From: Gordius sp. MW1
Lineage: Eukaryota; Nematomorpha; Gordioida; Gordea; Gordiidae
NCBI GenBank assembly: GCA_964036665.1
Contig: OZ038527.1
Coordinates: forward strand, 19,490,221-19,554,220
Length of the DNA: 64,000 nucleotides
Direction of reading: 5' to 3'
Positions 4,808-26,350 of the stretch are shown one piece after another. The notes beneath the pieces were generated by a model. That model worked only from the letters and a program-made list of their open reading frames with translations. It ran no database searches and was not told where the DNA came from. Position 1 is the first letter of the stretch, and the number at the start of each line of letters is the position of its first letter. A program made the position numbers and the translations under genes.

Positions 4808-5423
4808 ATAATTGCATAATTTTTTTTTTAAATAGATAAATAAGTTAATAGAATTAACAATAAGATTTGTATTCCAATACATTAATTTTAATAAATTATG
4901 ATTCTTATTTTGCTTTCTTTTTGAGCACTTTCATTTTTAATTCATTCTGTAAGATGGTTTTAGTATGAAGCAATAACTTTACAACTTTGATTGACTTGAA
5001 ATTTTAAAGATTCTTTTTTTGTATAAAATTTGATTTATGTCGATTTGGGAATATTGTTATTAATCTAATTTTAAAAATGCAAATTTATTATAGGTCTCAA
5101 GAAATTGGAGATCTATGCAATCGTAAAATTAAGTTTGCAAGAAGATCCAAAAAATTTTGGATAGCGCATGGGATCTATAAAGTCCATAGCAATTAAAACT
5201 AACTAATTTCAAATTGCTTGCTTTGAATTAATTAAAATTTGAATAGTCTACCTAAAAAAGTTTTATCTTTAAATAATATTATTTGACGAACACATTTCGG
5301 GGAATTAAAGGGCGTTATCATAATTACTATAATATTTAATTAAAGGGCACTATTTTGTATAATTTGTAATTTTAAAAGGCGCTTATCTCTCAATCTCACT
5401 GGCTTCTTCAAGCTAGCTGTAGC
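4808..5423. other. No gene recognised
   Basis: AT-rich sequence with no supported exon. It ends with the 8-bp repeat GCTGTAGC that flanks the next element. Confidence 0.4.
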
Positions 5424-6494: not shown

Positions 6495-6550
6495 GCTGTA
6501 GCACGCTTGAATTTATTAATTGTAAGTATTTATTATGTAAGTCGATGTCC

Positions 6551-6703
6551 ATGGGCCTAGCCAGTGGGTGGCAGGAAGGAACGGCTGCCCCCCTCTAAAT
6601 TCTAAATTTAATATAATTATGACTTAAATTTAGAAAAATTATCATTTTGCCCCTCCCTTAATCATTATTGCCCCCCCCCAAATCAAATCTTGGCTAAGCC
6701 CAT
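6551..6703. mobile_element. MITE, GGCGTAGCC-end family, copy 2
   Basis: Begins ATGGGCCTAGCC and ends GGCTAAGCCCAT, with the family's inner C-rich blocks. A perfect 10-bp duplication GTCGATGTCC flanks it (6541-6550 and 6704-6713). Confidence 0.8.
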
Positions 6704-7446: not shown

Positions 7447-8756
7447 AAATTTGGGTATAACTGCATTCTCTAATATTATAAGGAGATACCTATGGATATA
7501 TATAAATGTTATTTTATCAACTATACTATGGGGATTTAATTGATTTTTATACTATTAATCGACACTTACCTAAATGATAATATACACGTTATTTTTCAAT
7601 TCTATAATAAATTTCGTCATGTGCATTCTCAACAAATTTTGCTTGGACAAAAAATGCCCAAAATGGGTGAAAACTACTGGAGTAAATTATGTGAGTTCGA
7701 TTAAAAAAAAATAAAATAATATCTTGTAAAATATTTTTAATTTCGAATTTTTTACAAATTCAAGTGTAACTTTAAAATTGGTTGACTTTTCCATTGTTGT
7801 AGAGTTATATAAGCAAACCCTATCGGAAAAACTCTTACACGTTTTCGTTAGATTAGCTGTTTAAGTAAAAGGAAAATTTTGAATTAGAGCCATATTTTAT
7901 AACTATTGTAGATGAATAAAACATTTCAGGCCTGAAATGAAAGGAACACCTAAATTTTTTTAAAAATATCATATATTTTGTAATATCTTACTTATTTATG
8001 GAATCAAAACCTTTTTTCTTTACCTCTCCTTTTCGAACAAAACGGCACAGCGCAAAACGCCATTATGTGATATAGGACGGTAGTGTTCATCAAAATGGAG
8101 GCAAATTTCACACACAATTTGCCATATGGGACATATGAAATGGCCAGTCTATGTAGTCTATAGTAAAGTCTCGGTCTCGAAAGAAAATCTCGTCTCGCCT
8201 TGGGTGCCATTATGAAAATATAGATCTCGTCTTGGGCTAGAAAAATATCGATCATGTCTCGACGCTTGACCTGTTTCTACTTTTAAAATTTGTCATACTA
8301 TCTGAATTTTTCTCTTACTTTATAAATGGAAATAATTTCCACAAATAACTTAAAATGGCAAAAAAAATTTATTTAAAAACATCTTTTATTTATTTGAATT
8401 ATCTGGAACACTTAGTTAGCATTGAGAAAAGAAAGTATAGTCATTAAGCGCTTGGGTTTTGGCCCTCTACAATAACCGTTAGCAGTTCCTTCCAAGTTAT
8501 GGCTTGTTCATTATATTGTTATAGAGGCCTGAAAAGTTTAAGTGGGTACTTTTTATAATTATTTATAACATAAGTAATTAGTTGCACACATTACAACATA
8601 ATATACCAATTGGAATAGGAACATAAGATTTTCCGATTTCAATAAATTGCACATATTATTTTATAAATTTTCATAAAAGAATATTTTATTATAATTTAAT
8701 ACCCCATATTATCTCCCAAAATTTACACTTGATCCACTTTTTAATTTAGTCATAAG
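7447..8756. other. Intergenic; contains one copy of a dispersed repeat
   Basis: No gene seen. At about 8090-8165 there is a sequence starting AAAATGGAGGCAAATTT and running to CTATGTAGTCTATAG; a diverged copy lies at about 56095-56165. Between 8160 and 8270 there are repeated TCTCGTCTCG-like motifs also present near 27360 and 39070. These look like remnants of non-autonomous transposons. Confidence 0.4.
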
Positions 8757-8835
8757 ATTTAACGAAAATCGGCTAAGGTGGTATGGGCATATACTAAGAA
8801 GGGACACGGATGACGTAAATCGAACTCCTAATAGG
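8757..8835 (+). pseudogene. Non-LTR retrotransposon ORF2 C-terminus, left half
   Basis: The plus frame reads NRLRWYGHILRRDTDDVNRT, the conserved post-RT motif of many animal non-LTR retrotransposon proteins (usually RLRWYGHVxRRxED). Coding similarity stops at about 8835, where mitochondrial sequence begins. The continuation of the same protein resumes at about 26200, so this ORF was split by the mitochondrial insertion. Confidence 0.8.
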
Positions 8836-8861
8836 AGGTGTTGTGATAATGTTGTTCTTAC

Positions 8862-9634
8862 ACTTTCAAAGAAGATACCTACTCTGAATCACAACAGAAC
8901 CATCAAAACAGAAAACATTATAATAGCTAAATATTCCGCTATAAAGATTACAGCAAAGTATCCTGAATAGTACGCTGTATTAAAACCGGATACCAGCTCT
9001 GATTCCCCCTCTATTAGATCATACGGCGTACGGTTAGTTTCTGCTAATCTACAAATCAAGAAACTAATAAATATAACACTAACTACAACAACTATGGGAT
9101 AAACACATTCTTCAAATCAAAGTCTAAGAACAACATTCTCACAACACCTATAGCTATAAGTAAAATAACAAAAGAGACAGCTAACTCATATGAAACAGCT
9201 TGAGGTACTGCTCGTATGGCTCCTAATATTGAATACTTTCTATTAGAAGTTCAACCAGACAAGATCAAAACATAAACCCCCAGCCCTATCAAGCCAAGCA
9301 GAGCTACTAACATAATTTCCGCTTCTTGAGCGAAAGATGCTTGGCTCAGTACAAATTCGAAAAGGACCAAATAAAGTACTAGTGATAGGGCTGGGGCAGC
9401 CATTCATGCATGCCATCAAGCTGTTCTATATTTAAATGCCCCTTTGGAGAACAGCTTGATGGCATCCATGAATGGCTGCCCCAGCCCTATCACTAGTACT
9501 TTATTTGGTCCTTTTCGAATTTGTACTGAGCCAAGCATCTTTCGCTCAAGAAGCGTAAAAAACGATATTCTTACCAACAAAGATGCTTGGCTCAGTACAA
9601 ATTCGAAAAGGACGAAATCTGAAGGTGTAAACAC
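8862..9634 (-). pseudogene. nad1: Mitochondrial NADH dehydrogenase subunit 1 (NUMT copy)
   Basis: Reading from about 9634 (GTG start) downward with the invertebrate mitochondrial code gives [36 protein letters not shown], then a hydrophobic segment, then [34 protein letters not shown] and [16 protein letters not shown]. This is the normal domain order of complex I subunit ND1. The frame stays open through a 108-bp-arm inverted repeat, whose second arm encodes the 11 residues [11 protein letters not shown] that also occur near the N-terminus. The last part is truncated or scrambled at the left NUMT border. In this position the copy is a nuclear pseudogene although much of its frame is intact. 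Confidence 0.85.
9320..9555. repeat. Coding palindrome in nad1 (108-bp arms, 20-nt loop)
   Basis: Positions pair as x with 18875-x from 9320/9555 to 9427/9448 with one mismatch (9409/9466). Both arms lie in the nad1 frame: the outer arm encodes [12 protein letters not shown]...AIKLF and the inner arm encodes [21 protein letters not shown] second palindrome shares part of the same arm: 9508-9542 with 9579-9613, 35 bp, perfect, so one segment occurs three times in alternating orientation. Confidence 0.9.
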
Positions 9635-9921
9635 ACATACTAGAATCTTAACTTCTAAGCATAAACTCTGCCACTACAGATTCTTTTAAAGAGGAGCGTC
9701 TTTTAACATTTTTATTGTCGTGAAGAGGTTTACAGCCAGTAACCCCTAATACTTACTATAAACTTACTACAATACTTACTAATAATACTTACTATAATAC
9801 TTACTAATAATACTCACTATAACCTACTAATAACCCCACCCACCCATACCCCCTTTAAGGGGCAAGCCCCTTTTAACATTTTCTGTAAACCTCTTCACGA
9901 CAATAAAAATGTTAAAAGTAT
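9635..9921. repeat. Mitochondrial noncoding stretch between nad1 and cox1, with a 36-bp inverted repeat
   Basis: Inverted repeats 9700-9735 and 9883-9918 (36 bp, perfect) enclose tandem copies of an AATACTTACTATA-like unit and a C-rich tract. It lies between two divergently oriented genes, as a mitochondrial control region might. Control function is inference only. Confidence 0.6.
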
Positions 9922-11503
<1,582 letters not shown>

Positions 11504-11704
11504 TGTTGTGTTGATACTTTATATTCTTATTTCAATTGTTATTACAACTCTCATTGATTCTATTAACAACCATATATATATCGATTTGTACCCAATTGTT
11601 GGTAACCATTTTATTTTAGTTCCTGTGTCAACGTTCATGTTCTAACTAATAAATATCAATGTTTAGTTTCATTCCTGTGTCAACGTTCATGTTCTAACTT
11701 AATA
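11504..11704 (+). repeat. 5' LTR of the first gypsy element
   Basis: 201 bp, identical to the 3' copy as far as I can read. It contains a direct internal repeat of about 28 bp (TTCCTGTGTCAACGTTCATG plus a few bases) in its second half. It presumably carries promoter and poly(A) functions. Confidence 0.95.
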
Positions 11705-11705
11705 G

Positions 11706-11716
11706 TGGCGACGAGG
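11706..11716 (+). promoter_or_regulatory. Primer-binding site, tRNA-Ser(GCU)
   Basis: TGGCGACGAGG lies one base after the 5' LTR. It is complementary to the CCA-ended 3' terminus of tRNA-Ser(GCU), whose acceptor stem starts GACGAGG in animals. Confidence 0.75.
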
Positions 11717-11755
11717 AACAAGTAAATTAATTAATTGTTTGTAGGAAACATTGAA

Positions 11756-14700
11756 ATGGATGAATCAAAGTTATCAAAAATTCATTTAGCAGAGTTCAAT
11801 GCTGAACTACATTCAATTGAGGATTATATATTTAATATGGAATCCATATTGGAAATTAAAGGAATGGAGGCTACTGCATCAGTTAAGAAAAAGGTTCTTC
11901 TAGCTTTCATAGGGCTCAATACTATTAAAGAACTTAGACAATTACTTTACCCTACTAAGTTAAAGGATGCACAATATGAAGATATAGAAAAAATGTTATT
12001 CCTAAAATACCAACCCCCTCAGACTGTATTTGCTTCAAGATTTGAATTGTTAAATATTACAAGACATAATGGTGAATCCATACTAGAATTAGTCAGAAGA
12101 ATTAAAACATGTATTAGCAAATGTAATTACAAATCTGACATTGATGAACGTTGCAGGGACCATTTTATTTTTGCAATTAAGTTAAAGAGGCTAGAATTGG
12201 AGCTGAGGACCAAATTTCCTGACACCTTAGATGAAGTGGGTAATCCGTTAACTTTTGATAGGGTAATCAATATGGCATTAACAATGGAGAGGGCAGATAC
12301 CGAAACACAAGAAGAGAAAGAAGAAATGCTTTGTAAGATTAAACATGAATCATTCTCTCATAATCAACGTGACCAATCAAATAAACATTTTGGAAAAACG
12401 GTAAGTTGCTCAAGGTGCCATAAAGAACACCCCAAATTTCGTTGTCCAGCGTTCAATGCCACATGCTACAAATGTAAAAGAAAAGGACATTTTGCCATTG
12501 GCTGTCGAAGTTCATTGAATCAGATTGTTGATTACGAATCTTCGGATTCTGTAAACCGGATTGGGCAACATGCTAAACGTCTAACCATTACGGCGAGGCT
12601 TAATGGGCATCCGATTTCTATGGATTATGATACTGGAGCGCAGGTCTCCGTTATTAATGTTAAAGTATGGCAGCTTTTAGGGAGACCGTCGCTTCATGAA
12701 TGCGCGATTCCCAAAGCCTATGGAAATCAACCCGTCGAAATAATGGGAAAAACTCATATGGTCGTGGAAGTCGGTCATAATTCGCACTATCTTTCGGCTG
12801 TAGTTACGAAATCCAAAGATGTACCCTTATTTGGGTTGCCCTGGATTATTAAGTTTGGATTCCAAATTCCTAAAGAAGTTAAAATACATAAAATCAACCA
12901 GGAATTTGTGCAAAAGGAATCAATTAATCTCAACAAAGAGTTTCCACTGGTATTCAATGAAACTCCTACCCATTTACAGGGATTTGTTGTAAAAATCATG
13001 CTTTTGGACGAAGCGAAACCTATTGCGATCCCGGCGAGAAGAGTTCCTTTTCCGTTACGGAAGCCGGTTGAACTGGAACTCAATAGATTGGTACAGTCAG
13101 GTATCATTGAAAAAGTGGATCCTAGTGTTAGTAAAATAACGTGGTGCACGCCGATAGTAAACGTTAGGAAGAAAAATGGCGAAATTAGAATTTGTGCCGA
13201 TTTCAAGGTCACTCTTAACCCATTCATTCATAATGATCATCACATCATTCCTACGTTTGACGACATAGCAGCTAAAATTCGGGATGGTTATTTATATACC
13301 AAAGTTGACTTACGTGATGCATACCTTCAACTACCAATTGCTCTGGAATGTCAGAATTTATTAACTATTTCCACACACGTCGGTTTTTTTAAATACAAAA
13401 GAATGCCATTTGGGTTATCTTGTGCGCCTTTGATTTTTCAGAGATACATGGAGAGTATTTTGAGTGGTTGCAACCACACGGGTATTTATTTAGATGATAT
13501 AATTATCACGGGCAAAGATTACCAGGATCATCTATACAATGTAAGGGAAGTACTGAGCAAGTTACAATCCGTGGGCATGAAAGCACAATTTTCAAAGGTC
13601 GAATTTTTGAAAAAATCTATCACTTTTCTTGGACACACCTTTGACAGTGAAGGTATCCACCCTTCAAGTGATAAAGTACGAGCCATCAAAGACTGCCCAG
13701 CCCCAAAGAATGTTAAGGAATTGCGTTCCTTTCTGGGCTTAATCAATTATCATGAAAAGTTTATACCACATTTACATGGTATAATGGCTCCCCTACATAA
13801 ATTAACTAGTATCAAATCAAAATGGTATTGGTCACAAACCGAGGAGTCGGTGTTTCAAAAGGTTAAAACTTTGCTATCGGAGCAGTCTACGTTAGTTCCT
13901 TATTCAAATGAGTTACCGCTGATCCTGGAATGCGACGCATCGGAACATGGATTTGGAGCGGTACTTTTTCACTTAATTGGCGATAATAAGAGGCCAATTG
14001 CTTACGCGTCAAGGACGTTGATTGATGGTGAGAAGCAATACGCATCAATCGATAGAGAAGCAAGGGCCTTAGTCTTTGGTATGGAAAAGTTTCATACTTA
14101 CTTATCAGGTCGCAAGTTTGTGCTACGCACGGACCATAAACCGTTGGAAAGGATTTTTGGGGCTTCAAGGGATTTGCCCAAAATCAGCAATAACCGTTTA
14201 ATAAGGTGGGCATGGAAAATGTCGGGGTATGATTATAAAATAGAATACATTCCTGGCAAAGATAACGGATGTGCTGATGCCTTATCTCGTTTACCGGCCC
14301 CTGCCACGGAGTCCGATATGATCAATTTTTACAAAAGCAATTCGATAAATAGTATTCGTCTTTTAAATCTGCAAGATTTACACTTAACAGAGGAATTATT
14401 AATAAAGGAATCTCTCGTGGATACAAACTTAAAACTGTTAAAAAGATTTATAGATAAAGGTTGGCCTAAAAGCAAAAAGGACCTCCACAAGGATATTCAA
14501 GTTTTTTTTGACAGGAAGAATGAGTTAGAGCATGACAAGGGAGTCATTTTTGTAGACGGCCTGATAATTGTGCCGTCACGACTAAGGCATCAAGTCCTGT
14601 CAATAATTCACCGGGGCCATCCAGGGATCAATGCAATGAAATCGATCGCCAGATTATATGTTTATTGGCCGCACATGGATAAGGATATTGAAAGGCACGT

Positions 14701-15646
14701 GCAGAATTGTGTGGGGTGCCAGAAAAATAGAAGTAATAGACCTGAAGTCCCTCTGTATTCTTGGAACGTAACTGAAAACCCTTGGGAAAGGGTACATTTA
14801 GATTATGCGGGGCCAGTTGACGGATATTATTGGTTGGTGGCGGTGGATTCGTTTTCCAAATGGATTGAAGTAGCGCAGTTACGAAGTTCGACCATTCAGG
14901 TTACATTAAAGAAATTACGAGAGTGGTTTGCCAGATGGGGCGTTCCGAAACAAATAGTTACGGACAACGGACCCCAGTTTAGAAGCCAAGAGATGCACTT
15001 CTTTTGTGATCAGTATCATATTAAACACATTAAAACAACGCCGTACCATCCAAAAACGAATGGACTCGTCGAAAGAGCCATCAGGACGTTGAAATCACGT
15101 TACGCAGCGGCGCGCGAATATAATGCGGACCCGGAAGTCTGCATGTTAGATGTCCTCCTTAGCTATCGCATAAGCGAGCATTCTTCAACCGGTAGATCCC
15201 CATCTAAAGCATTAATTGGAAGAAATGTTAAAACGGCGTTGGACTGGGTACGTCCCACTCAGAAGAAATATATGGAACAAAAAATCGATAAACAGGAAGA
15301 GTGGCATGATGCGCATGCGGCGAAGAGAGAATTCATTCCGGGTCAATTGGTATGGGTAAAAAATGAAATGAATAGCGGGTGGAGAGCGGGAAAGATTCTT
15401 AAACGCAACGGACCTTGGTCCTATCTAGTGGAAACGCGAAACAAAAACATGCGAAAACATGGTGATCAGTTGAGAGATCGGGCAAGCATTGTTGATCCTC
15501 AGGTCCCGGAAGAGGGGGAAGATGATAGTTCTGACGACATGTCTTCTGGTCCAACACCAAACGAACAAGAACAAGAAAGTAGTACCATCCTAAGGAAATC
15601 GGAAAGGATTAGGAAACCCCCCAGCCGTTTAATAGAAGAAATTTAG
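11756..15646 (+). CDS. Gag-pol polyprotein of a Mag-like gypsy retrotransposon
   Basis: One uninterrupted frame of 1,296 residues from the ATG at 11756; an earlier in-frame TTG exists but ATG is preferred. Gag ends with two zinc knuckles, about residues 217-230 (CSRCHKEHPKFRC) and 236-249 (CYKCKRKGHFAIGC). The aspartic protease motif DTGAQ is near 291. Reverse transcriptase spans roughly 440-620, with KVDLRDAYLQ and the catalytic YLDD near 576. RNase H follows (ECDASEHGFGA near 723, RTDHKPLERI). Integrase has the HHCC zinc finger from about 951 (HRGHPG...CVGCQ) and the DDE residues in LDYAGP, TDNGPQF and KTNGLVER. The product copies element RNA into DNA in virus-like particles and inserts it in the genome. 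Gag and pol are fused in one frame, without a stop or shift. All catalytic motifs look intact. Confidence 0.95.
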   Translation: MDESKLSKIHLAEFNAELHSIEDYIFNMESILEIKGMEATASVKKKVLLAFIGLNTIKELRQLLYPTKLKDAQYEDIEKMLFLKYQPPQTVFASRFELLNITRHNGESILELVRRIKTCISKCNYKSDIDERCRDHFIFAIKLKRLELELRTKFPDTLDEVGNPLTFDRVINMALTMERADTETQEEKEEMLCKIKHESFSHNQRDQSNKHFGKTVSCSRCHKEHPKFRCPAFNATCYKCKRKGHFAIGCRSSLNQIVDYESSDSVNRIGQHAKRLTITARLNGHPISMDYDTGAQVSVINVKVWQLLGRPSLHECAIPKAYGNQPVEIMGKTHMVVEVGHNSHYLSAVVTKSKDVPLFGLPWIIKFGFQIPKEVKIHKINQEFVQKESINLNKEFPLVFNETPTHLQGFVVKIMLLDEAKPIAIPARRVPFPLRKPVELELNRLVQSGIIEKVDPSVSKITWCTPIVNVRKKNGEIRICADFKVTLNPFIHNDHHIIPTFDDIAAKIRDGYLYTKVDLRDAYLQLPIALECQNLLTISTHVGFFKYKRMPFGLSCAPLIFQRYMESILSGCNHTGIYLDDIIITGKDYQDHLYNVREVLSKLQSVGMKAQFSKVEFLKKSITFLGHTFDSEGIHPSSDKVRAIKDCPAPKNVKELRSFLGLINYHEKFIPHLHGIMAPLHKLTSIKSKWYWSQTEESVFQKVKTLLSEQSTLVPYSNELPLILECDASEHGFGAVLFHLIGDNKRPIAYASRTLIDGEKQYASIDREARALVFGMEKFHTYLSGRKFVLRTDHKPLERIFGASRDLPKISNNRLIRWAWKMSGYDYKIEYIPGKDNGCADALSRLPAPATESDMINFYKSNSINSIRLLNLQDLHLTEELLIKESLVDTNLKLLKRFIDKGWPKSKKDLHKDIQVFFDRKNELEHDKGVIFVDGLIIVPSRLRHQVLSIIHRGHPGINAMKSIARLYVYWPHMDKDIERHVQNCVGCQKNRSNRPEVPLYSWNVTENPWERVHLDYAGPVDGYYWLVAVDSFSKWIEVAQLRSSTIQVTLKKLREWFARWGVPKQIVTDNGPQFRSQEMHFFCDQYHIKHIKTTPYHPKTNGLVERAIRTLKSRYAAAREYNADPEVCMLDVLLSYRISEHSSTGRSPSKALIGRNVKTALDWVRPTQKKYMEQKIDKQEEWHDAHAAKREFIPGQLVWVKNEMNSGWRAGKILKRNGPWSYLVETRNKNMRKHGDQLRDRASIVDPQVPEEGEDDSSDDMSSGPTPNEQEQESSTILRKSERIRKPPSRLIEEI

Positions 15647-15667
15647 GCTTTTGTAGGCGAAGGGAAA

Positions 15668-15868
15668 TGTTGTGTTGATACTTTATATTCTTATTTCAAT
15701 TGTTATTACAACTCTCATTGATTCTATTAACAACCATATATATATCGATTTGTACCCAATTGTTGGTAACCATTTTATTTTAGTTCCTGTGTCAACGTTC
15801 ATGTTCTAACTAATAAATATCAATGTTTAGTTTCATTCCTGTGTCAACGTTCATGTTCTAACTTAATA
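15668..15868 (+). repeat. 3' LTR of the first gypsy element
   Basis: 201 bp, same sequence as the 5' LTR, followed by the second copy of the CTATC target duplication. Confidence 0.95.
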
Positions 15869-16552
15869 CTATCTAACAATCTGACCTGATTGTAATGAAC
15901 CCATGACATTTTTTTAAATGATATAATATCCTCTTCATCAGAGTACCTACTACTTTTACACGAATTTGCTATAGCTTAAATCACTGCTATTACAGTAATA
16001 GTTATATTTTTTACTATTTTACACCAAAAGCTATACTCTAAAATTTGCACATATAAACTTAACAGAATTTATTAGAACAGTTCTACCTTTGTAATTTTAA
16101 AAGCTATAGCATTGCCCACAGTAAAAATTTTATATTCTAACAAAGATGCGCACTGACCTGATCTTACTGTAAAAGTGATAGGGGCTCAGTGATATTAAAA
16201 CTATGAATACTCCGATTTTGAAAATTAAACTTTGACTAGTACATAATACAACAAGAAGACTTAAACAGATATAAAACACGGCTACTTGACACAGACAATC
16301 ACTTAGTGCTGCCTTACAAAATTATAACACGCTTAATTATCTCATCTAATGACGTCATCCACTCATTTGCTCTATCATAATTTTCTATAAAAATAGACGC
16401 TATTCCGGGTCGTTTAAATCAAATATTTATTCTCCCTAATAAGCCTATAATTACTTACGGTCAGTGTTCCGAAATTTGTGGAGTCAATCACTCTTTTATA
16501 CCTATCTGTTTAGAAGTTCTATCTACTAATAATTTTTTAAACTGAGTAACAA
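15869..16552 (+). pseudogene. cox2: Mitochondrial cytochrome c oxidase subunit II (NUMT copy)
   Basis: With mitochondrial code, frames show [65 protein letters not shown] and [20 protein letters not shown]. The last of these contains the Cys/His ligands of the CuA centre (C..EICG..H). Frameshifts and a TAA at a Trp-codon position show decay. Transcription in the parent mitochondrion would run with cox1 upstream and a probable tRNA-Lys downstream. Confidence 0.85.
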
Positions 16553-16555
16553 CAA

Positions 16556-16622
16556 AGTAATACAATTAAAAAGCTTTTATGAAGCATCAACCTCTTAAGT
16601 TGAAGAAGTTACTAGTAACTTT
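16556..16622 (+). tRNA. trnK: Probable mitochondrial tRNA-Lys (CUU), NUMT copy
   Basis: Between cox2 and atp6 a stem CAAC/GTTG encloses the loop CTCTTAA, the usual anticodon loop of mitochondrial tRNA-Lys(CUU). A possible T-arm (AGTTACTAGTAACT) follows. The location between cox2 and atp6 (atp8) is the common ancestral place for this tRNA. I could not fold a convincing acceptor stem, so boundaries are approximate. Confidence 0.4.
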
Positions 16623-16634
16623 ACCTGCCTTGGG

Positions 16635-16666
16635 GGTTTATATCACCTTGTCAAGGTGATAAACCT
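16635..16666. repeat. Hairpin upstream of atp6
   Basis: GGTTTATATCACCTTG is followed immediately by CAAGGTGATAAACC; a near-perfect hairpin with one 2-nt bulge, at the cox2/atp6 junction of the mitochondrial block. It may be an RNA-processing signal in the parent mitochondrion or another of the many palindromes. Confidence 0.6.
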
Positions 16667-16687
16667 ACATATTAGCCCCCTCATCCC

Positions 16688-17218
16688 CCAAACTTTTCGG
16701 ATAATAACGTCAATTATTACGTTACTAATTTTATTATGAATTTTTACATCGTCTATTCTGTCTATCGGAGGGCCCTCTGATACTATTAAGCCCTTCATGG
16801 TAGGAAGAGTGGGTGTTTAGTTTCTATGTGTATTTTCTCAGCTATTTTGTCATATAATTATCTGGGTTTAATACCGTACACGTACACTTTAACGTTTAGT
16901 ACAGCTATTATTCTCTCCCTTTTTTTGCAGTAGTAAATTTTTTAACAGGCTTAAAATCATACATATTTATCCCATCGGGATCGCCTATTGTACTAGTTCC
17001 TTTTTTGTTTATCATTGAGCTTGTTTCTATTCTAATCCGACCTATCACTTGGCTCTCCGACTTTCAGCAAATATTACAAGTGGTCACATTTTAAAACACC
17101 TTTGCATGGGCTTAATGACCACCCATCCTTTCATAGCTTTTGGCCCCGCCGTGCTTTTAATGACGTTAGAGAATTGGTCTGCTTTATTCAAGCCTATGTT
17201 TTTATATCTCTTTTAAGA
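16688..17218 (+). pseudogene. atp6: Mitochondrial ATP synthase subunit 6 (NUMT copy)
   Basis: Mitochondrial-code frames contain NYLGLMPYTYTLTFSTAMI, then PSGSPMVLVPFLFMIELVSM and LIRPITW, the conserved proton-channel helices of ATP6 (family signature LVPFL.xIExxSxxIRP). Frameshifts near 16815, 16925 and 17060-17120 break it. An atp8 gene is not recognisable between cox2 and atp6. Confidence 0.75.
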
Positions 17219-17223
17219 CTTTA

Positions 17224-18031
17224 TGTTAGAGAAACAGCTAATTAACTTAACATTCATGATAACTAACCCTGTGTACATATTATATAACTCATGATGGCCT
17301 TTGATATCCGCATTTTCCGGGTTGTCCTTCATGACCGCTTTTTTATCGTTACTGTGAATAAAAAACGTTTACCTTAGAAGTCTTTGTTTGGGTGTTTCAG
17401 TTCTTATACCCTATACACTTTCTATCTTTGATGGCAAGATTTACAACGAGAAAGTGTTTTAAGAGGTCAATAACTAGTACTATTGAAAACTCTTTAAAAT
17501 TTTTCTTTATTCTATTCATTACTTCGGAAATTATATTTTGTATGTCATTTTTTTGATCTTTTTTTCATTTCTCTGATCCTGAAATTGGAACAAATTGGCC
17601 GCCTTTAGGTATTGACCCTATCCCTTTCTTCGAGACGCTTATACTAAATACAATCATTTTACTTACAAGAGGAATGTGACCTGAGCGCATCATTCTTTTT
17701 TTAATAAGATAAAAACCTCTACTTTAATTTTGACTTTTGTAACAATATTACTAGGTGTGTATTTTACTTTTTTGCAGCTTGAAGAATACATAACGTCTAA
17801 TTTCTCTATAAATGACTCCTGCTATGGTAGTGTGTTTTTTATGTCAACAAGGTTTCATGGTTTACATCTTCTAGTAGGATCTATGTTTTTAATGTCCTTA
17901 GTACCCCGCATAATGTCACGTCTTAATAGTTCTAACGACATTCCTCATTTTGAGCTAGCAGCCTGATACTGACATTTTGTAGACGTAGTATTATTATTTT
18001 TATACCTTTGTATATATTGATGAGGAGAATA
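17224..18031 (+). pseudogene. cox3: Mitochondrial cytochrome c oxidase subunit III (NUMT copy)
   Basis: Recognised from YNSWWPLMSAFSGLSFMTAF, MTSEIMFCMSFFWSFFH, EIGTNWPPLGIDPIPFFETL, MLNTMILLTSG, then FHGLHLLVGSMFLMSL and FELAAWYWHFVDVVLLFLYL to the terminal YWWGE. These are the usual COX3 membrane segments. The only clear lesion is a frameshift region near 17700-17730. One AGG falls where most animals have Gly (TTGFHG). Confidence 0.85.
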
Positions 18032-18084
18032 ACAGAATCTTATTATAAATAGAATACAACTAATTTCCATTTAGAAGACCGTAG

Positions 18085-18277
18085 ATGTTAATAAATTATA
18101 TATTAATATTTTTTGTACCTTTAGCTATTGTGTTATTGTTATACAACGTATATAAGAAATCTTCACTATGTCGACCGGTACCCCTAGAAGCCTCAGATCT
18201 TCTTTTGAATGCGGCATCGACATTTTAAGTGTTGCACGAACACCTTTTTCTTTAAAATTCGTATACTTAGCTATTAT
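18085..18277 (+). pseudogene. nad3: Mitochondrial nad3, 5' part (NUMT copy, split by a gypsy element)
   Basis: Starts ATG at 18085 with a hydrophobic first helix and reads SFECGIDILSVARTPFSLKF, the loop conserved in complex I subunit ND3 (FECGFDP...A..PFSLRFF). There is a frameshift near 18165. The frame is interrupted by the second gypsy element after the target ATTAT (18273-18277). Confidence 0.85.
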
Positions 18278-18397
18278 TATAAGGATAGGATGGTTTATGG
18301 GAATTTTAATAACGCGATTCGATGACAGGAAATTACATATTCGTTACATAACACACTCGTTACAATTACATACTCGTTACATAACACAATCGTTACA
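18278..18397 (-). repeat. 3' LTR of the second gypsy element
   Basis: 120 bp; appears identical to the 22435-22554 copy. It includes three or more repeats of a CGTTACATAACAC motif. Confidence 0.95.
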
Positions 18398-18418
18398 TCT
18401 CTCCCCGTTTAACCAGCT

Positions 18419-21400
18419 TTAAATTTCTTCAATTAATCTCCGCGGTGGCTTCCTTGGTCTATTTTCCCTTTTTAAGTTTCCATCACCTTTATCTTCCGGT
18501 ATGTCATTATCTACCGGCACTAGTTCTTCCTGTATTGCCTCTGTAGGTTCTGGTCTTGATATCTCTTGATCATAAACTACCTCCTCCTCTTCACATGATG
18601 CATCATTAACAACCGGGCAAGCCAAATCTTGATCTTCCACTACCTCCTCTTCTCTTTTTCTCAATTGGTCCGCATGTTTGCGCACGGCTTTATTGTTACT
18701 TACAACGCTATAGGACAATAACCCATTCCTAGCGAGTACTTTTCCTTCCCGCCATCCTGGTGCCAATTCATTTTTTACCCAGACTAATTCATTTATTTCA
18801 AAGTTTCGTGGACGTGTCGTCATATCATGGTGAAAGGCTTGTTTTTTAATTTTGTGTTCCATAATGGTTTGGGGACTTGGTCGGGACCAATCGAGCATTG
18901 TCCGATTCCTCCGTCCGAAAAGCATCTTGGATGGCGACCTACCTGTTGAGTTATGTTCACAAACCCTGTATGCTGATAAAATTTCATTCATACACTCCTC
19001 TGGATCCTTTTCTCTGGTGGCCAAGGCCAAGTAACGGCTTTTTAATGTTCTAATACATCTCTCTGCACAACCATTTGTCTTGGGATGGTAAGGAGAGATC
19101 AGAATATGCACTATATTATAATTCTTGCAGAATTGCCTAAACTCCACGGTAGTAAACTGAGGTCCATTATCGCTGACTATTTGACGTGGAACACCAAATC
19201 GAGCAAACCATCCTTTTAGTTTTTTTATCAATATTTTAGAATATATATTCCTAAGGAGTTCCACTTCAATCCACTTTGAATAAGAGTCAATACCGACAAA
19301 CCGGTAGTAGGAGTCCATCGGTCCTGCTAGATCTATATGTAATCGTTCCCAAGGCGTGTTCGTTACGTTCCACGAATATAATGGAACTTCAGGAATATTT
19401 ATGCGGTTCCTTTGACAATTACCACAATTCGCAATAAATTTATTAATGTCTAAGTCCAAACCTGGCCAGTAAACATAATATCTACTAATAGATTTCATCG
19501 CGTTAATCCCAGGATGTCCCCTGTGCAAAATATTTAATACAGATTTACGTAGTGTCTTTGGTATGACTATTCGACCGTTCCATTGTATGATACCCTTATC
19601 CGAACATAATTCACTTTTCCTATAGAAATACGGTAATACATCTTCGCCGACGGCATTTTTGTTTACATTCCAACTTTGATCTATATATATCAAGACTTTC
19701 TTGAGAGTGCTATCACCAAGAGTTTCCTTCGCGATTGTTTTTTCCGACACTTGTAAGTCTTCTAGCGTAATTGACTTTAGGCAGCCAAAATTTTTTTCAT
19801 CTTCTGATAGCCCCTCGTTAATTTCCGATAAGGGTAGTCGCAGGCATCTGCAACGCAATTTTCTTTCCCTGGTCTATATTCTAAACTATAATCATATGCG
19901 GACAACTTCCAAGACCACCTTATTAATCGATTATTGCCAATTTTCGACAAATCCTGATGTCCGCCAAATAGCCGCTCCAAAGGTTTGTGGCTGTCCGCAA
20001 GGTAAACTTCCTTCCAAATATATAGGCATGGAATTTTTCACAGCCAAACAACAATGCCCTCGCTTCTTTGTCAATCGAGGCATAGTTTTTCTCTGATTTT
20101 GAAAGAGTCTTTGAAGCGTAAGCAATTGGTTTTTCCAACCCGTTGGAAAATTGGTGCATTAAAACGGCTCCGAATCCATCATTTGAAGCGTCACAATCAA
20201 GGATTAAAGGTAAATCAATTGAATAGGGAATAACCGTGTCTTTATGAGTTAAGATTGTCTTAACTTTTTTATAGACAGCGTCTTCTATTGGTGTCCAAGT
20301 CCACTTGCACTTTGGACTCGTCAATCGATGTAGTGGAGCGCATAAACTATGCAGATGGGGAATAAACTTCTCATAGTAATTTATCAGGCCCAAAAAGGCC
20401 CTTAATTTCTGTACGTTTTGCGGAATCGGTGCCTCTTGTATTGCTCGAATTTTCTCCGACATTGGGTGTATGCCAAATCTGTCTATACGAAATCCCAAAA
20501 AAGTCACAGAGTCTTCTAAGAATTTAACTTTTGCCAACTTAGCTTTTAATCCTGCGTTATTCAGTCTTGATAGTACCACTGTTAAATTGCGGAAATGCTC
20601 GTCATCATTCTCACCCGTAACTATCACATCATCTAGGTACACTCCCGTCTTTTTGCAATCCTTAAGCAAGTCGTCCATATATCTCTGGAATAGTATTGGT
20701 CCTGAGGCAAGTCCAAACGGCAACCGTTTGTAGCGATAATAGCCCACATGCGTATTGATGATCAGGAAATTTTGGGATTGCTCATCCACACTCATTTGTA
20801 AGTAATCGTCGTAAACTTTTTTCCCCCGGATTTTGCCACAATATCATCAAATGTGGGTAAGATGTGATAGTCTTTAAGAAGAAAAGGGTTCAATGTGACC
20901 CTAAAATCCCCACAAATACGAATATCACCATTATTTTTCATAACGTATACCGTTGGTGTTGCCCATTCAACGCGACATTTAGAAGGATCGACCTTTTCGA
21001 TTATATCCGCCGCCATGAGTCTATCTAATTCCTTTTCTATCGGGCCCCGTAATGGAAAGGGCACCCGACGGGCCGGCAGAACCTTCCCACTAGCTGACGA
21101 TTCAACGTTTATACGAACTGGACAACCATTAATGACTCCCGGTCGCTCATCAAAAATTCCGGCAAATTTCTTTATTAGATTATCAATTTTGGTACTCGAG
21201 TTTTGATTTAAACTAGTCACTGATTGTTGAACCTTGGAAATTTTGACACATTTCGGAGTATAGTCCAAAATTTAATATCCAGGGTAGGCCAAATAAGGGT
21301 GTGTCCGATGTTTTTGTCACGATGACAGGCAGTAATTTGCTCTGGTCGCCTAGCCCCACTTTAATGTTTGTTTCGCCGATTACATCTAGTTTTTGATGGC

Positions 21401-22421
21401 CATACCCCGTTAAATTATGCGTTGGCCGTAATTTCGGCTTTCCTATGTGATTCCAAATTTCCTCATTTATTACCGACACCTGAGCGCCGGTGTCATATTC
21501 AAACCGGAATGGAACATCATTTAACGTGGCTTCAATTGTTGCTCGTTTCCGATCACTTTTTTTAATGTGATTGATAGAATTAATTTCGCCAACCTCTTCC
21601 TCACGATCATCAAAAACTTGGTTAACCCTCTTATTCTTGCATGCCCGCGAAAAATGCCCCATCTTATTACAATTATAACACTTTGCCGTAACTGCAGCGC
21701 AATGATTACGAGTGTGTGACCGGCCACAACGAAAACATTTAGAGGAGGTACGGTTGGAGTCGGTCTGACCCTTACTAACACCTACACCATTACGATTATC
21801 CCTTATTCGATTTATATTCAAGGAATTAACCTCGCTCTCTGCCGTCTCCCATGCTAAAGCCATATCCAAAATTTTATCAAAAGTTAAGCTTTTACCTGTT
21901 TCGTCAAGCATCCTAGGATATTTACTCCGAATTTCGACCTCCATCTTCGGGAATCGAATTCCTGCTACGAATTGGTCCCGAAGACGCTCTTCAACATCAT
22001 TATTAAACTGTGCCGCTTGTGCAGTTTCCTTCAATCGTTTCGTAAATCCTAACACCGACTCACCTTCTGACCTCATAAGGCGAATAAACTCTAATCTTGA
22101 AGCCATAGTACTGGATCTAGGTTTAAAAATGGTCTTACATGTTTCAATGATCTTCTCCCAATCCACATTTTCGATTTTACATGGAAATAAGTAATTTTTT
22201 ATTTGTATCACATTCTGAATTCCAAAATAGGCGAGGAATAATTTTTTGTAGATCTGTTTCAATGCATCACCCGTTGCGCATATTCCTTTGGCTATTAGAA
22301 TATATTCCATATTTTCTAAATACTCCTCTATTGGAATATCCGTGGAATAAGGTAGGAGCGTAATTTTTGAAATATCCACTTCGTTCTTCATAGAATTTTC
22401 TGTCTTTATTGTAGATTCCAT
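18419..22421 (-). pseudogene. Gag-pol of the second Mag-like gypsy element, interrupted
   Basis: The ATG is at 22421, right after the primer-binding site. Gag with two zinc knuckles (CFRCGRSHTRNHC, CYNCNKMGHFSRAC) and protease DTGAQ read in one frame to about 21266. There the frame shifts inside the protease-RT spacer. RT continues to about 20810, where several residues are lost: the motif-A segment (KVDLRDAY in the first element) is reduced to KVYDDYLQ. YLDD, RNase H (CDASNDGFGA) and a further shift near 19990 follow. Another shift near 19850 leads to a 479-residue integrase frame with HRGHPG, LAGPMD, SDNGPQF and KTNGCAERC, ending with a basic tail. Protein similarity to the first element is high along the length. 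As written it cannot give a full polyprotein. Confidence 0.9.
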
Positions 22422-22423
22422 CT

Positions 22424-22432
22424 TCGTCGCCA
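22424..22432 (-). promoter_or_regulatory. Primer-binding site of the second gypsy element
   Basis: On the minus strand TGGCGACGA lies two bases inside the 5' LTR; it matches the first nine bases of the first element's site, complementary to the 3' end of tRNA-Ser(GCU). Confidence 0.65.
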
Positions 22433-22434
22433 GA

Positions 22435-22554
22435 TATAAGGATAGGATGGTTTATGGGAATTTTAATAACGCGATTCGATGACAGGAAATTACATATTCG
22501 TTACATAACACACTCGTTACAATTACATACTCGTTACATAACACAATCGTTACA
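22435..22554 (-). repeat. 5' LTR of the second gypsy element
   Basis: 120 bp; identical to the other LTR as far as read, and followed on the plus strand by the ATTAT target copy. Confidence 0.95.
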
Positions 22555-22559
22555 ATTAT

Positions 22560-22701
22560 ATTTATTATTTTTGATTTAGAAATTACAATTATCCTTATCC
22601 CATTAATATCTAATTATTATGAACTACTTATCAGTGGTGTAATAGTACTAATTCGGACAGTAGGGCTGCTATTTGAGTGAAAATATAAAAATTTAACTTA
22701 A
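22560..22701 (+). pseudogene. nad3: Mitochondrial nad3, 3' part (NUMT copy)
   Basis: Continues the frame lost at the gypsy insertion: YIIFDLEITIIL and LFEWKYKNLT then stop TAA at 22699-22701. IFDLE and FEW are the C-terminal ND3 signatures. Removing the element and one ATTAT copy joins the two parts. Confidence 0.85.
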
Positions 22702-22986
22702 ATAATCTAGCTATAAACTATAAGGGGCCTTTAAATTACTTTGCACGTAATTCTAGGCGATCATACACCAGTCTCCACAAAAAGGTCAAAACTGATGTAT
22801 GTATGCTAGAAATCTAGATTTCGACTCACTTTTAGGTAATTTACTCAGAATATTTAACTGTTATTTAAAATGCGGTACCACTATGCCCCTAAAAGAATCA
22901 ACACAGCGGGTTAGAGTAAACGATTTAAACTGCTAATTTAATACTATAGAAGAAACCATTTTACTCTCTGGTGAATAATAGCATAA
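22702..22986. other. Mitochondrial intergenic stretch, probable degenerate tRNA genes
   Basis: No protein frame. Short stem-loops with possible anticodon loops are visible, for example ATTTCGACT (TCG, Arg) near 22830 and ACTGCTAA (GCT, Ser) near 22930. An Arg tRNA between nad3 and nad4L would fit the deuterostome-like order, but I could not fold full cloverleaves. Confidence 0.35.
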
Positions 22987-23046
22987 TTTTTTGAATTGCA
23001 AGCTTGCTAGTATTATCTTCTACTAGCAAGCTTGCAATTCAAAAAA
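22987..23046. repeat. Coding palindrome in nad4L (26-bp arms, 8-nt loop)
   Basis: Arms 22987-23012 and 23021-23046 pair perfectly (core GAATTGCAAGCTTGCTAG). Both are in the nad4L frame. Confidence 0.85.
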
Positions 23047-23170
23047 ATAAACCTTTAATAACTCTTATCGCTATTGAAATACTGTATGTGTCCTTAATTT
23101 TAATTATTATAAAAACAGTTTCGTACACACAAAACAGTATCACATCTCCAATTTTTATTATGGTTATTAT

Positions 23171-23425
23171 CAGGCGCGTAGCCAGGATTTTCTCAAGGGG
23201 GGGGGGATGTCAAAAAAAATTTTATAGCATTTTTATTTCAAGAACTTCATCGGGAGTAGGAGCTAACTCCCGATGAATTGTCAATAAAGCCAATTCATTT
23301 AATCTATTCTTAGACATGGTATTTTTAATGTAAGTTTTTAGCCTCCTTAGCGTTGAGAAGCTATAAATTTTTTTTTAATTTTTGCCAAGGGGGGGGATTT
23401 CCCGTTCCCCCCCCCCTTACGCCAC
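23171..23425. mobile_element. MITE, GGCGTAGCC-end family, copy 3, inserted in nad4L
   Basis: Begins CAGGCGCGTAGCCAGG and ends TTACGCCAC, with G and C runs inside. Flanked by a perfect 10-bp duplication TGGTTATTAT (23161-23170 and 23426-23435). The insertion is younger than the mitochondrial transfer. Confidence 0.85.
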
Positions 23426-23547
23426 TGGTTATTATTGTAATTGAAGCAACACTGGGTTTAACAGTACTTATTAATACAGCACGTCAAACATCAGCTAAAA
23501 ATTCGTCAAACGCACATCTTTCATCACTATAGTTTGAAAGCAAAAAT

Positions 23548-24745
23548 ATGACAGTAGTTCTCAATATATCTTTAGCTACATTATCTGCGGCTATCCCTCC
23601 TCTGCTATTGTGCTGTTTTGAGTCACTAAGCTCTCAAGACATTTTTGCAGTAAATAAAATCATCAGCATGGATAGCCTGTCTGTTATACTAACTCTGCTA
23701 ATTTTATGAGTGTCTCTCATATCAGTAATCTACGTCGCCGACAACCACAGAAAAGCATTTAAGCTTCATATACTTATGCTAAATGCTTCTCTGACAATAC
23801 TTATGCTAAGAAGATTTCTTCTATCCGATCTATTGCTGTTTTTTATTTCGTATGAAGTCTCTATGATTCCTATTTTATTTATAGTCTGAGGTTGGGGTGG
23901 AAATTTCAAAAAATCAAAAGCAGGGGCATTCTTATTACTCAAGAACATTTAAAATGTTTTTCAAACCTTATCGTCGTATTTATAACCCTAGCTTTTTTGT
24001 AAAAACACCTATGTACGGATTACACATGTGACTACCTAAAGCTCATGTAGAAGCATCTACAATAGGGTCTATAATCCTCGCTGGTTCTTTATTAAAGATA
24101 GGGGTGTATGGAATCTAGCGCACACCTTTTATTCATGCACACCTTTTAGTAAACAGATCATTTTTTATTATAGTTATAATAATTTCTGTGGGGGGATGAG
24201 CGTTTCATCAAGGATTATGCTTATGATGTATGACGGAAAAATCGCTATTGCCTTATCAAGTGTGTCTCACATGAATATACTTCTCTCTAGTTTAGTCTTT
24301 TCACTTGAATCATTTAATACCTCTTATCTAATTAGTCTATCTCACGGTTTCATTAGACCAGCCATGTTTTTAATTTTCAGATTATATTATAAAAGATAAA
24401 ATCGCGTAATATAATAATATCTCGGGCTACTGCATCTCTAAGATGTCTCTCATTAGGATTAATCTCATTTTTTATTTTTATAGAAAATGCAGGTTGCCCT
24501 CCATCCTACAATTTTTGGGGTGAATTTACTATTTTTTTTAATTTAATTAGATTTAATCCTATCCCTATAGCTCTACCTTTATTTATCACTAGAATATGTG
24601 TTTTAAGCTTTTCGTCTTTCATATTCTCCCGTATAACCAACGGAAATCCTGAATTTTTAAAAAAATGAACCATTAAACCTTCAAGCTTGTCATTACTTTT
24701 CCTTGTTACCCCTTCTGTTTTAGCGTGAAAATACCCTTTGTAAGC
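23548..24745 (+). pseudogene. nad4: Mitochondrial NADH dehydrogenase subunit 4 (NUMT copy)
   Basis: From ATG 23548 frames show KMMSMDSLSVMLTLLILW, FFISYEVSMIPILFMVWGWG, then LHMWLPKAHVEASTMGSMIL and AGSLLKMGVYG, then KPSSLSLLFLVTPSVLAWK near the end. LPKAHVEA and MILAGxLLKxGxYG are ND4 signatures. Frameshifts and stops occur near 23950, 24115-24200 and 24400. Confidence 0.8.
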
Positions 24746-24971
24746 CACATAAAAATAAACTTATGAGCCCTCGAAGTGAGTATATAATCATAAAATGTGA
24801 AATTATGTTAGGACATGAACATGTATAACTCACAATATCAATTAATATTAATAACAAAAATTTTACATTGCTAATATGATGTGTTCTGCTGCCTGTTATC
24901 AAATTAACACTTCTCAAAATAGAAAGAATAATTATAAGAATTATAATTAACCCTAAAAGAAGATATGGCAT
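24746..24971. other. Mitochondrial stretch between nad4 and nad5, unresolved
   Basis: The minus strand (24971 to 24720) has an 83-codon hydrophobic frame starting MPYLLLG. Its composition is membrane-protein-like, but I cannot match it to nad6, nad2 or atp8. The plus strand near 24790 has CATAAAATGTGAAATTATG, which might be the anticodon arm of tRNA-His (GTG). The first part of nad5 seems to be missing here. Confidence 0.3.
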
Positions 24972-25388
24972 AGAGATATATTTTTACAGACCCTTTCACA
25001 GCCTCTTTTTTAATTACGTTAATATTGGTCTCTGTAACAATTTTAATTTATTCTGAATACTACATAGAAAATAATATCTATCAAGGGTTTTATAAGTCCA
25101 TGTTAAATATGTTTATTGTTTTGATAGTGTTAATAGCCATGTCTCCTCATCTTATTTTTTTGAATTTAGGGCGAGATGGTTTAGGTTTAACATCGTATTT
25201 GTTAATTATATACTATCAAAATAAAGACTCTATACTTAAAGCAAATCTGACTCTTATTTTGAACCGGGCTGGTGACATTCTTCTTATCATAGCTGCTTGT
25301 TTATTTATAAATCCCTATATTAAAACAGGTATTATAACAGGAGTAGGGGCAGCCATAGTAAAGGCTGCCCAACTCCCCTGAAGAGGTT

Positions 25389-25501
25389 GACTGCTGGTAG
25401 CTATGGCTGCCCCTACTCCTGTTTCTTCGCTTGTTCACTCAAGCAGCTTGAGTGAACAAGCGAAGAAACAGGAGTAGGGGCAGCCATAGCTGCCAGCAGT
25501 C
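25389..25501. repeat. Coding palindrome in nad5 (56-bp arms, 1-nt loop)
   Basis: Axis at 25445; x pairs with 50890-x from 25389/25501 inward with one mismatch (25398/25492). The left arm encodes AMAAPTPVSSLVHSS; the right arm in another frame gives SEETGVGAAMA, matching the place of TAGVY in ND5. The segment ACAGGAGTAGGGGCAGCCAT also occurs upstream at 25333-25354, so it is present three times. Confidence 0.9.
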
Positions 25502-26114
25502 TTGATCCTTGATCTGTTTCTTAGATCCGTAGCTGCTTGAAAAGAAAAAGATATTAAAAAAATTATTGCTTTAAGAACAATAAATCAAATATCTTTACTT
25601 TTGTGTACAATTTTTTTAAAGATATACTAAGCGTGCCTGGCTCACATGCTTACACATGCCATTTTTAAGAGTAGCCTCTTCATAAATGCAGTGGCTTTAT
25701 TCATAACAACGCCAGCAACCAAGATATTCGTGATAACCCTTGCGTCATAAATTTTTTTAATCAATCTTCTTTTTTATCTCTATGGGCTCTAAGAGCCCTT
25801 CCTGCTTCAACAGGATTTTTTTCAAAGAAAATTTTCTCTACTCCTGTTACTTCGCTTTCATTTTTTGTTATGTCACTAGGCATATTTATAACACTAGGTT
25901 ACACTTGACGACTGTTCTCTATGATAAACTTTGAGACACCGCCATTGAAAAAAGAAATTCATACCATTCCTAATACTAAACTTTACGTATCTTTGTCTGT
26001 GTCTGGGGTACTTAATCTTATTTCTGTTTCAGCTATTATTATTGCATGTAATAACACAGGAGAGTCCAACCCACCTGTTATAAATTTATTTTTAATAATA
26101 AGTCCCTTTCTATC

Positions 26115-26187
26115 AGGGCTCTCATTGAGTGTATTTGTCGAGGAAGACCTGCTTCAAGTAGCGACAAATACACTCGATCAGAGCCCT
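26115..26187. repeat. Inverted repeat at the right end of the NUMT (26-bp arms)
   Basis: 26115-26140 and 26162-26187 pair with two mismatches. Arms would encode GLSLSVFV and ATNTLDQSP in nad5 frame. Confidence 0.75.
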
Positions 26188-26195
26188 AGGGCTCT

Positions 26196-26350
26196 TAACC
26201 GGGGAAGAGAGGAAGAGGACGACCCCGTGTCACGTGGAAAAGGCAAGTCGACAAAGTTATGAAACTAAAGAGATTAGTCAAGACATGGCACTCACCCGGT
26301 CAAGATGGAAGAAGCTTATCAAAACAAACCTCACAAATATGGGACCAAAT
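26196..26350 (+). pseudogene. Non-LTR retrotransposon ORF2 C-terminus, right half
   Basis: Reads RGRPRVTWKRQVDKVM then, after a frameshift, EISQDMALTRSRWKKLIKT. This is the typical end of non-LTR ORF2-like proteins (RGRPxxTW...D...LT...A.DR..WR.LI). It continues the fragment at 8757-8835 with only about 15-20 residues unaccounted for. Confidence 0.75.

What the first reader, a model, noticed from the sequence alone, without database searches (positions are those of the whole stretch)
9320..9613. Triple coding palindrome in nad1
A segment encoding [11 protein letters not shown] occurs once forward and twice reverse-complemented within one open nad1 frame. Arms are 108 bp (one mismatch, 20-nt loop) and 35 bp (perfect). 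The reverse-complement copies both encode [11 protein letters not shown], a hydrophobic stretch that fits ND1 membrane segments, so the protein carries the same peptide twice. Length and order of the surrounding ND1 motifs match normal ND1, so the palindrome is not a random insertion. Coding palindromes are known from nematomorph mitochondria; the three-fold shared arm is notable.
Basis: partly seen in the sequence, partly recalled or inferred. Interest (0 to 1): 0.85.

Follow-up and report, generated by a model that had tools for sequence, protein, structure and literature searches.

The report
Nuclear fossil of mitochondrial hairpin gene
The palindromic nad1 segment is a broken nuclear copy of a hairpin-bearing mitochondrial gene of a kind already known from hairworms, and the nuclear copies in this genome suggest that the two hairpin arms evolve in step and that single arms can end up inserted in chromosomes.

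Summary
The palindrome is real: window 9316-9427/9448-9559 (98%, 20-nt loop) plus a third copy at 9579-9618. But it sits in a nuclear copy of mitochondrial DNA (NUMT, 8825-26197) broken by retroelement-like inserts; its nad1 has a 5-nt insertion and lacks the 3' end. The same assembly holds an apparent mtDNA contig (C12) whose open nad1 has the same triple arm with perfect 108- and 40-bp stems. That structure was published for Nematomorpha in 2019 (PMC6649704), so the palindrome itself is known.

What the nuclear copies add: (1) 36 of 1,903 paired arm sites changed on both arms, about 2 by chance (relatedness not modelled). (2) Large NUMTs lost the centre of long, near-zero-loop palindromes in 24 of 24 cases, against 8 of 23 with loops of 17 nt or more; nad1 survived in 2 of 6. 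(3) In four regions 38 of 57 short dispersed inserts end within 4 nt of a hairpin loop, about 7 expected; many are single arms. I infer tip-opened hairpin stems captured by nuclear break repair. Against: nad1's own dispersed inserts and one nad6 hairpin show no such ends.

The parts
8825..26197 (+). NUMT: nuclear copy of mtDNA 2774 to about 11947 (right end ambiguous: it also aligns to 12137, a palindrome centre), in pieces separated by inserts
   Evidence: blastn of the window against C12: pieces 8825-9742, 9752-10881, 10881-11502, 15871-16830, 16768-18277, 22552-23170, 23428-26197 at 81-90% identity; edges
8825..9634 (-). nad1 pseudogene, 3' end missing, frameshifted
   Evidence: differences from C12 nad1 by codon position 16/6/52, 50 synonymous and 21 nonsynonymous codons, one 5-nt insertion
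9316..9427 (.). palindrome arm 1 (encodes the second [11 protein letters not shown] on the minus strand)
   Evidence: pair I2
9428..9447 (.). 20-nt loop
   Evidence: mtDNA equivalent 3372-3391
9448..9559 (.). palindrome arm 2 (encodes [11 protein letters not shown] on the minus strand)
   Evidence: pair I2
9579..9618 (.). third copy of the shared arm (first [11 protein letters not shown]), one mismatch here, perfect 40 nt in C12
   Evidence: pair I6
9114..9124 (-). site of the private 5-nt insertion that breaks the nad1 frame
16768..16830 (+). junction left by loss of the atp6 palindrome: this stretch aligns to both mt 6522-6586 and mt 6796 onward, as expected of a deletion between direct repeats
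   Evidence: length 73 against 270
9700..9735 (.). arm of a control-region palindrome (partner 9883-9918)
   Evidence: pair I9
9883..9918 (.). partner arm of the control-region palindrome
   Evidence: pair I9

Best explanation
The window holds a NUMT that froze an older state of a hairworm mitochondrial genome, including the known nad1 coding palindrome. In the mitochondrion both arms encode ND1 sequence and stay identical because a change on one arm is copied to the other (mirroring shown; mechanism inferred, probably template switching or hairpin-templated repair as proposed in PMC6649704). In the nucleus copying between arms is not seen to keep up: the window copy shows 2 mirrored differences from present mtDNA and 1 unmirrored difference in its 108 pairs. 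Nuclear copies of long palindromes with loops of 0-5 nt lose their centres (shown); the nad1 pair with its 20-nt loop survives in 2 of 6 large copies, this window being one. Further inference: mitochondrial hairpins are opened at the tip and their double-stranded stems are ligated into nuclear breaks, giving short single-arm NUMTs.
For: Nuclear location and 12-contig genome. C12 is 14,798 bp with open nad1, atp6, nad5 part, nad2 and nad6-like frames (nad6 scores 30.9 bits, below Pfam's 33.2 cut-off) and perfect nad1 stems of 108 and 40 bp. Window copy 81-90% identical to C12, third-codon bias 16/6/52. Arm changes over seven copies: 34 mirrored, 2 both-changed but not complementary, 23 single of 1,903 pairs; 36 both-arm changes against a shuffle mean of 1.95, maximum 8 of 5,000. 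In nad1 the series window, C5 copy, C12 differs at mt 3343 and 3355 on both arms each time. Centre loss: 24 of 24 (loop 5 or less, arm 39 or more), 2 of 13 (loop 5 or less, arm 26-31), 8 of 23 (loop 17 or more). Single-arm inserts: 38 of 57 events against 7.1 expected; tip within 1 nt of the arm end in 19 of the 24 loci printed, which were chosen as tip-ended.
Against: Mirrored changes in related copies are not independent events and the shuffle does not model that. Selection for pairing could also give mirrored changes. nad1 itself lost its hairpin in 4 of 6 large copies, so a 20-nt loop is not sufficient. The five dispersed nad1 inserts (3 of 5, null 2.4) and the nad6 13614.5 hairpin (1 of 11, null 2.4) show no loop-end excess. 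Several centre losses are shared by related copies (C3 and C8b share the nad5 one).
Confidence: 0.85

Rival explanations
1. The window is mitochondrial DNA misassembled into a nuclear contig, so the palindrome is the working gene.
For: Full-length palindrome with near-perfect arms in an otherwise mt-like stretch.
Against: 81-90% identity to C12, a private frameshift, missing 3' end, retroelement-like frames inside, several other copies of differing identity elsewhere.
Confidence: 0.03
2. Arm identity is kept by selection for an RNA or DNA hairpin (compensatory changes), not by copying between arms.
For: Conserved hairpins, strong fold; mirrored changes are what compensation also gives.
Against: Listed mitochondrial stems of 20-108 bp are perfect with no G-U excess tested; PMC6649704 (Discussion section read) argues that imperfect intermediates are missing. 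Not tested directly here.
Confidence: 0.2
3. Single-arm nuclear inserts arise after insertion: both arms went in, and the unstable nuclear palindrome then lost one arm.
For: Centre loss of long near-zero-loop palindromes is general in the large copies (24 of 24).
Against: Large copies usually keep parts of both arms around a central gap; at L062 the centre end abuts another mtDNA piece directly, at L047 and L061 within 7 and 12 nt; at L070 a 39-bp arm sits alone inside a GTAT microsatellite.
Confidence: 0.25
4. The excess of ends at centres is a detection artefact of searching with palindromes or of old inserts being visible only in conserved stretches.
For: Inserts also cluster in the two control regions, where I defined no hairpins (cox1 4811-4924, and 7535-7632); detection depends on conservation.
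Against: An insert spanning a centre would align across it, because both arms match equally; junction sequences switch to unrelated DNA at the centre; four searches scored every candidate (39 of 39, 21 of 21, 25 of 25, 16 of 16).
Confidence: 0.1

Closest known systems
Coding palindromes in mitochondrial genes of Nematomorpha (Mikhailov et al. 2019, PMC6649704; abstract, most of Results (parts 1 and 2 of 3), Discussion and passages read)
   Same: nad1 palindrome shared by all four species, overlapping shorter repeat and direct repeat, both arms coding, perfect arms, concerted change
   Different: That paper studies mtDNA; the words 'nuclear' and 'numt' do not occur in its main text. Here the copy is nuclear and serves as a dated ancestor.
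Hairpin-rich mtDNA of Parachordodes pustulosus (PMC10380579; abstract, part of Results and passages read)
   Same: Hairpins in nad1 and other complex I genes, same gene order; nad1 on the minus strand next to the control region
   Different: No mention of NUMTs found in its main text; about coverage and expression.
NUMTs in general
   Same: Divergent mtDNA pieces in nuclear contigs, mosaics of several pieces
   Different: Here ends coincide with hairpin loops and many short pieces are one arm.
Organelle palindromes in the nuclear genome of Volvox carteri (PMC2670323; passages read)
   Same: Palindromes of organelle DNA found in nuclear DNA
   Different: In Volvox the nuclear copies keep the hairpin structure and are non-coding repeats in the same proportion as other regions; here single arms end at centres and the source is coding.

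Membership tests
Nematomorph mitochondrial coding palindrome (source gene) | Long inverted repeat inside a mitochondrial protein gene, both arms coding conserved residues | tested here: met
   C12 nad1 arms 3264-3371/3392-3499, 108 bp perfect; ND1 colinear with mouse ND1 over residues 30-323
Nematomorph mitochondrial coding palindrome (source gene) | Overlapping shorter repeat giving a direct repeat in nad1 | tested here: met
   3447-3486/3523-3562, 40 bp perfect; compared with the figure legend only
Nematomorph mitochondrial coding palindrome (source gene) | Concerted change of arms | tested here: met
   36 both-arm changes of 1,903 pairs, 34 of them complementary
Nematomorph mitochondrial coding palindrome (source gene) | Host is a nematomorph | tested here: inconclusive
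   Gene order of the frames fits the published order, but no species name is available and no tree was built
NUMT | mtDNA-derived sequence in a nuclear contig, diverged and non-functional | tested here: met
NUMT | Joined to nuclear flanks in raw reads | not testable with these tools
   no reads available

The most novel reading that the evidence does not exclude
Mitochondrial hairpins feed nuclear genome evolution in a specific way: folded-back mtDNA stems are opened at the tip by a structure-specific nuclease and ligated as double-stranded filler into nuclear breaks, so that chromosomes collect single hairpin arms cut at the palindrome centre, sometimes several stems in a row, while full palindromes carried in by large NUMTs lose their centres. 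The same copies form a dated record of how coding palindromes are kept perfect in mtDNA.
Probability: 0.5. Interest if true: 0.7.

Novelty: new variant of a known kind. Interest (0 to 1): 0.5.

Why it matters
The nad1 palindrome is known, but how such palindromes are made and kept perfect is open (PMC6649704 says the mechanism remains to be established). NUMTs of several ages in one genome give ancestral states, so mirrored change, decay and loss can be counted instead of guessed. If the single-arm pattern holds, it shows that hairpin structure decides which mtDNA pieces enter the nucleus and where they are cut, which is testable in any genome with structured organelle DNA. It also warns that nuclear copies must be excluded before a hairworm mitochondrial palindrome is described.

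Tried and rejected
Working nad1 gene in the window: rejected (frameshift, missing 3' end, nuclear contig). Novelty of the three-fold arm: rejected after the Figure 1 legend. tRNAs and Rfam families in the window: none reported. The idea that every hairpin shows loop-end inserts: not borne out; out-of-sample regions gave nad5 10966.5 1 of 10 (null 0.37), nad5 11170.5 5 of 10 (null 1.87, P 0.02), nad6 13614.5 1 of 11 (null 2.37, P 0.93), nad1 3 of 5 (null 2.38, P 0.45) (regions searched; one search had already shown part of the nad5 and nad6 hits). The idea that fragments always stop at the stem base: not a clean rule, since control inserts are of similar length. The idea that a 20-nt loop protects nad1: only 2 of 6 large copies are intact. 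Rate of short inserts: 78 events in 2,321 bp of palindrome regions against 12 in 882 bp of two control regions, but only two controls and conservation differs, so I give it little weight. Species name: not found; Gordionus montsenyensis was considered from memory and from passages in PMC10380579 but not tested.

What was dropped before the counts: rows lying in the large NUMT clusters (C12; C5:672-687k; C8:2.828-2.833M and 415-434k; C1:25.28-25.294M and the window; C3:79-95k; C4:355-382k and 1.457-1.487M); one overlapping row (C2:15872166-15872217); rows that belong to loci already counted; for nad1 only 5 dispersed loci lying on the stems (L073-L077) were tested, not the other dispersed hits. 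Loci with the same mapped ends within 1 nt were merged to one event (76 loci to 57 events). In one search related copies were counted separately. Searches scored only 40 of 103, 110 and 60 candidates and were not used for the statistics.

Claim that NUMTs with hairpin-tip ends are not in print rests on searches of an open-licence library only (57: no paper with all five terms).

Full report
Observation. The inverted repeat 9316-9427/9448-9559 (112 nt, 98%, 20 nt apart) and the shorter pair 9503-9542/9579-9618 (40 nt, 98%) are in the sequence. The minus strand under code 5 encodes [11 protein letters not shown] twice and [11 protein letters not shown] once. The segment folds at -222.1 kcal/mol, z -26.5.

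What it lies in. The window is C1:19490221-19554220 of a 211.8-Mb, 12-contig genome. Blastn against C12 (14,798 bp) shows that 8825-26197 is a divided copy of mtDNA from 2774 to about 11947 or 12137 at 81-90% identity. C12 carries open frames that match Pfam ND1, ATP synthase A, ND5-type and ND2-type domains (the nad6 frame is below Pfam's cut-off at 30.9 against 33.2 bits) in an order that fits the published nematomorph order. Its nad1 is open over 329 codons from stop to stop, and aligns to mouse ND1 over residues 30-323. The window nad1 has a 5-nt insertion that the seven other copies covering the site lack and ends about 48 codons early. Its differences from C12 fall 16/6/52 on codon positions 1/2/3, with 50 synonymous and 21 nonsynonymous codons, so most of the divergence arose under selection in mitochondria, and the nuclear copy is a snapshot (inference).

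Known part. PMC6649704 (abstract, most of Results, Discussion and passages read) reports 110 perfect inverted repeats in four nematomorph mtDNAs, a nad1 repeat in the same place in all four, and in its Figure 1 legend a shorter overlapping repeat and the resulting direct repeat. The three-fold arm is therefore known. The same paper reports concerted change between arms from species comparison and from one pair of substitutions between two individuals.

Arms change together. In C12 the nad1 stems are perfect (108 and 40 bp). Relative to C12 the window copy has two mirrored differences (mt 3343 and 3355) and one unmirrored difference in 108 pairs; the C5 copy has one mirrored difference at 3355; the third copy has one unmirrored difference in the window. 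Over seven copies, 34 pairs changed on both arms and stayed complementary, 2 changed on both and did not, 23 changed on one arm, of 1,903 pairs; the shuffle gives 1.95 both-arm changes on average, at most 8 in 5,000. Related copies share history, which the shuffle ignores.

Fate in the nucleus. In large copies, mitochondrial palindromes with loops of 5 nt or less and arms of 39 bp or more have lost or collapsed their centre in 24 of 24 copy-palindrome cases; with arms of 26-31 bp in 2 of 13; with loops of 17 nt or more in 8 of 23 (which recounts). Some cases are shared between related copies. nad1 is intact in the window and C5 and damaged in C6, C8a, C3b and C5b. In the window itself the palindromes at mt 3992, 6700, 9469, 10936 and 11898 (loops 0-3) and the loop of 11096 are damaged, whereas nad1's two pairs are intact. 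The atp6 loss runs between direct repeats, the same kind of jump that PMC6649704 saw in PCR; here copies with and without it exist in one assembly.

Single arms in chromosomes. Focused searches on four palindrome regions, with every candidate scored, gave 76 dispersed loci, merged to 57 events. An end lies within 4 nt of a hairpin loop boundary in 38 of 57, against 7.1 expected from random placement: atp6 14 of 25 (2.4), nad6 13926.5 9 of 11 (0.9), nad5 11996 and neighbours 11 of 15 (2.9), nad2 12967 and neighbours 4 of 6 (0.9). The first three were not reached in 4,000 simulations, the fourth in 22. With ends counted as inside the loop or within 3 nt, near-zero-loop palindromes give 25 of 67 event counts against 3.4 (maximum 10 in 2,000 simulations), longer loops 32 of 72 against 15.7 (maximum 28). 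Of 24 tip-ended loci printed with their junctions, 19 end within 1 nt of the arm end, and the sequence beyond is unrelated to mtDNA there. At L070 a 39-bp nad5 arm stands alone inside a GTAT microsatellite. At L062 the centre end abuts another mtDNA piece; at L047 and L061 another piece follows within 7 and 12 nt, the L061 pieces being short and weak. Two large copies also end at such places: C3 at the nad1 loop boundary, mt 3392, and the window copy 6 nt past the centre at mt 2780 on the left, outside the tolerance used; its right end may be mt 11947 or the centre at 12137.5.

Results against. nad1's own dispersed inserts show no excess (3 of 5 against 2.4), nor does nad6 13614.5 (1 of 11 against 2.4); nad5 10966.5 gave 1 of 10 against 0.4. 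Inserts also cluster in the two control regions without long palindromes, so other causes of clustering exist. The regions were chosen after the pattern was seen, so those tests are not blind.

Reading. Shown: NUMT, pseudogene, known source palindrome, mirrored arms, centre loss, centre-ended single arms. Inferred: arm copying in mitochondria by template switching or repair; tip opening of hairpins and capture of stems by nuclear end joining. Later loss of one arm, RNA-derived copies and selection for pairing are not excluded. The palindrome is a known kind; the centre-ended single-arm inserts would be a new variant of NUMT.

Noticed in passing
window 3542-4553: A 1,012-bp palindrome with 506-nt arms, 98% complementary and no spacer, in DNA outside the NUMT.
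   Followed up: no
window 11735-15646 (+) and 18419-22451 (-): Two retroelement-like inserts inside the NUMT, with reverse-transcriptase- and integrase-like stretches by eye (recalled motifs, no family search run).
   Followed up: no
window 44001-46000: GC rises to 0.51 with AT skew -0.27 against about 0.3 GC around it.
   Followed up: no
G000 C4: 198076, 214729, 220462, 316271 against 1670827, 1642300, 1636555, 1538334: NUMT copies in mirror order and opposite strands, suggesting a large inverted duplication or an assembly fold on C4.
   Followed up: no
C6:172175, C1:28051955, C3:21758, C3:25653838, C8:37124838: One nad2 stem insert in five copies, each within about 310 kb of a contig end, probably spread with a subtelomeric repeat.
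   Followed up: no
mt 4811-4924 and 7535-7632: Short dispersed inserts cluster here although I defined no long palindrome; conservation or weaker structure may explain it.
   Followed up: partly
C8:9465440, C3:3111864 and C4:14714826: The last two inserts have identical mapped ends (13837-13925) but different flanks, which suggests a recurrent cut.
   Followed up: partly
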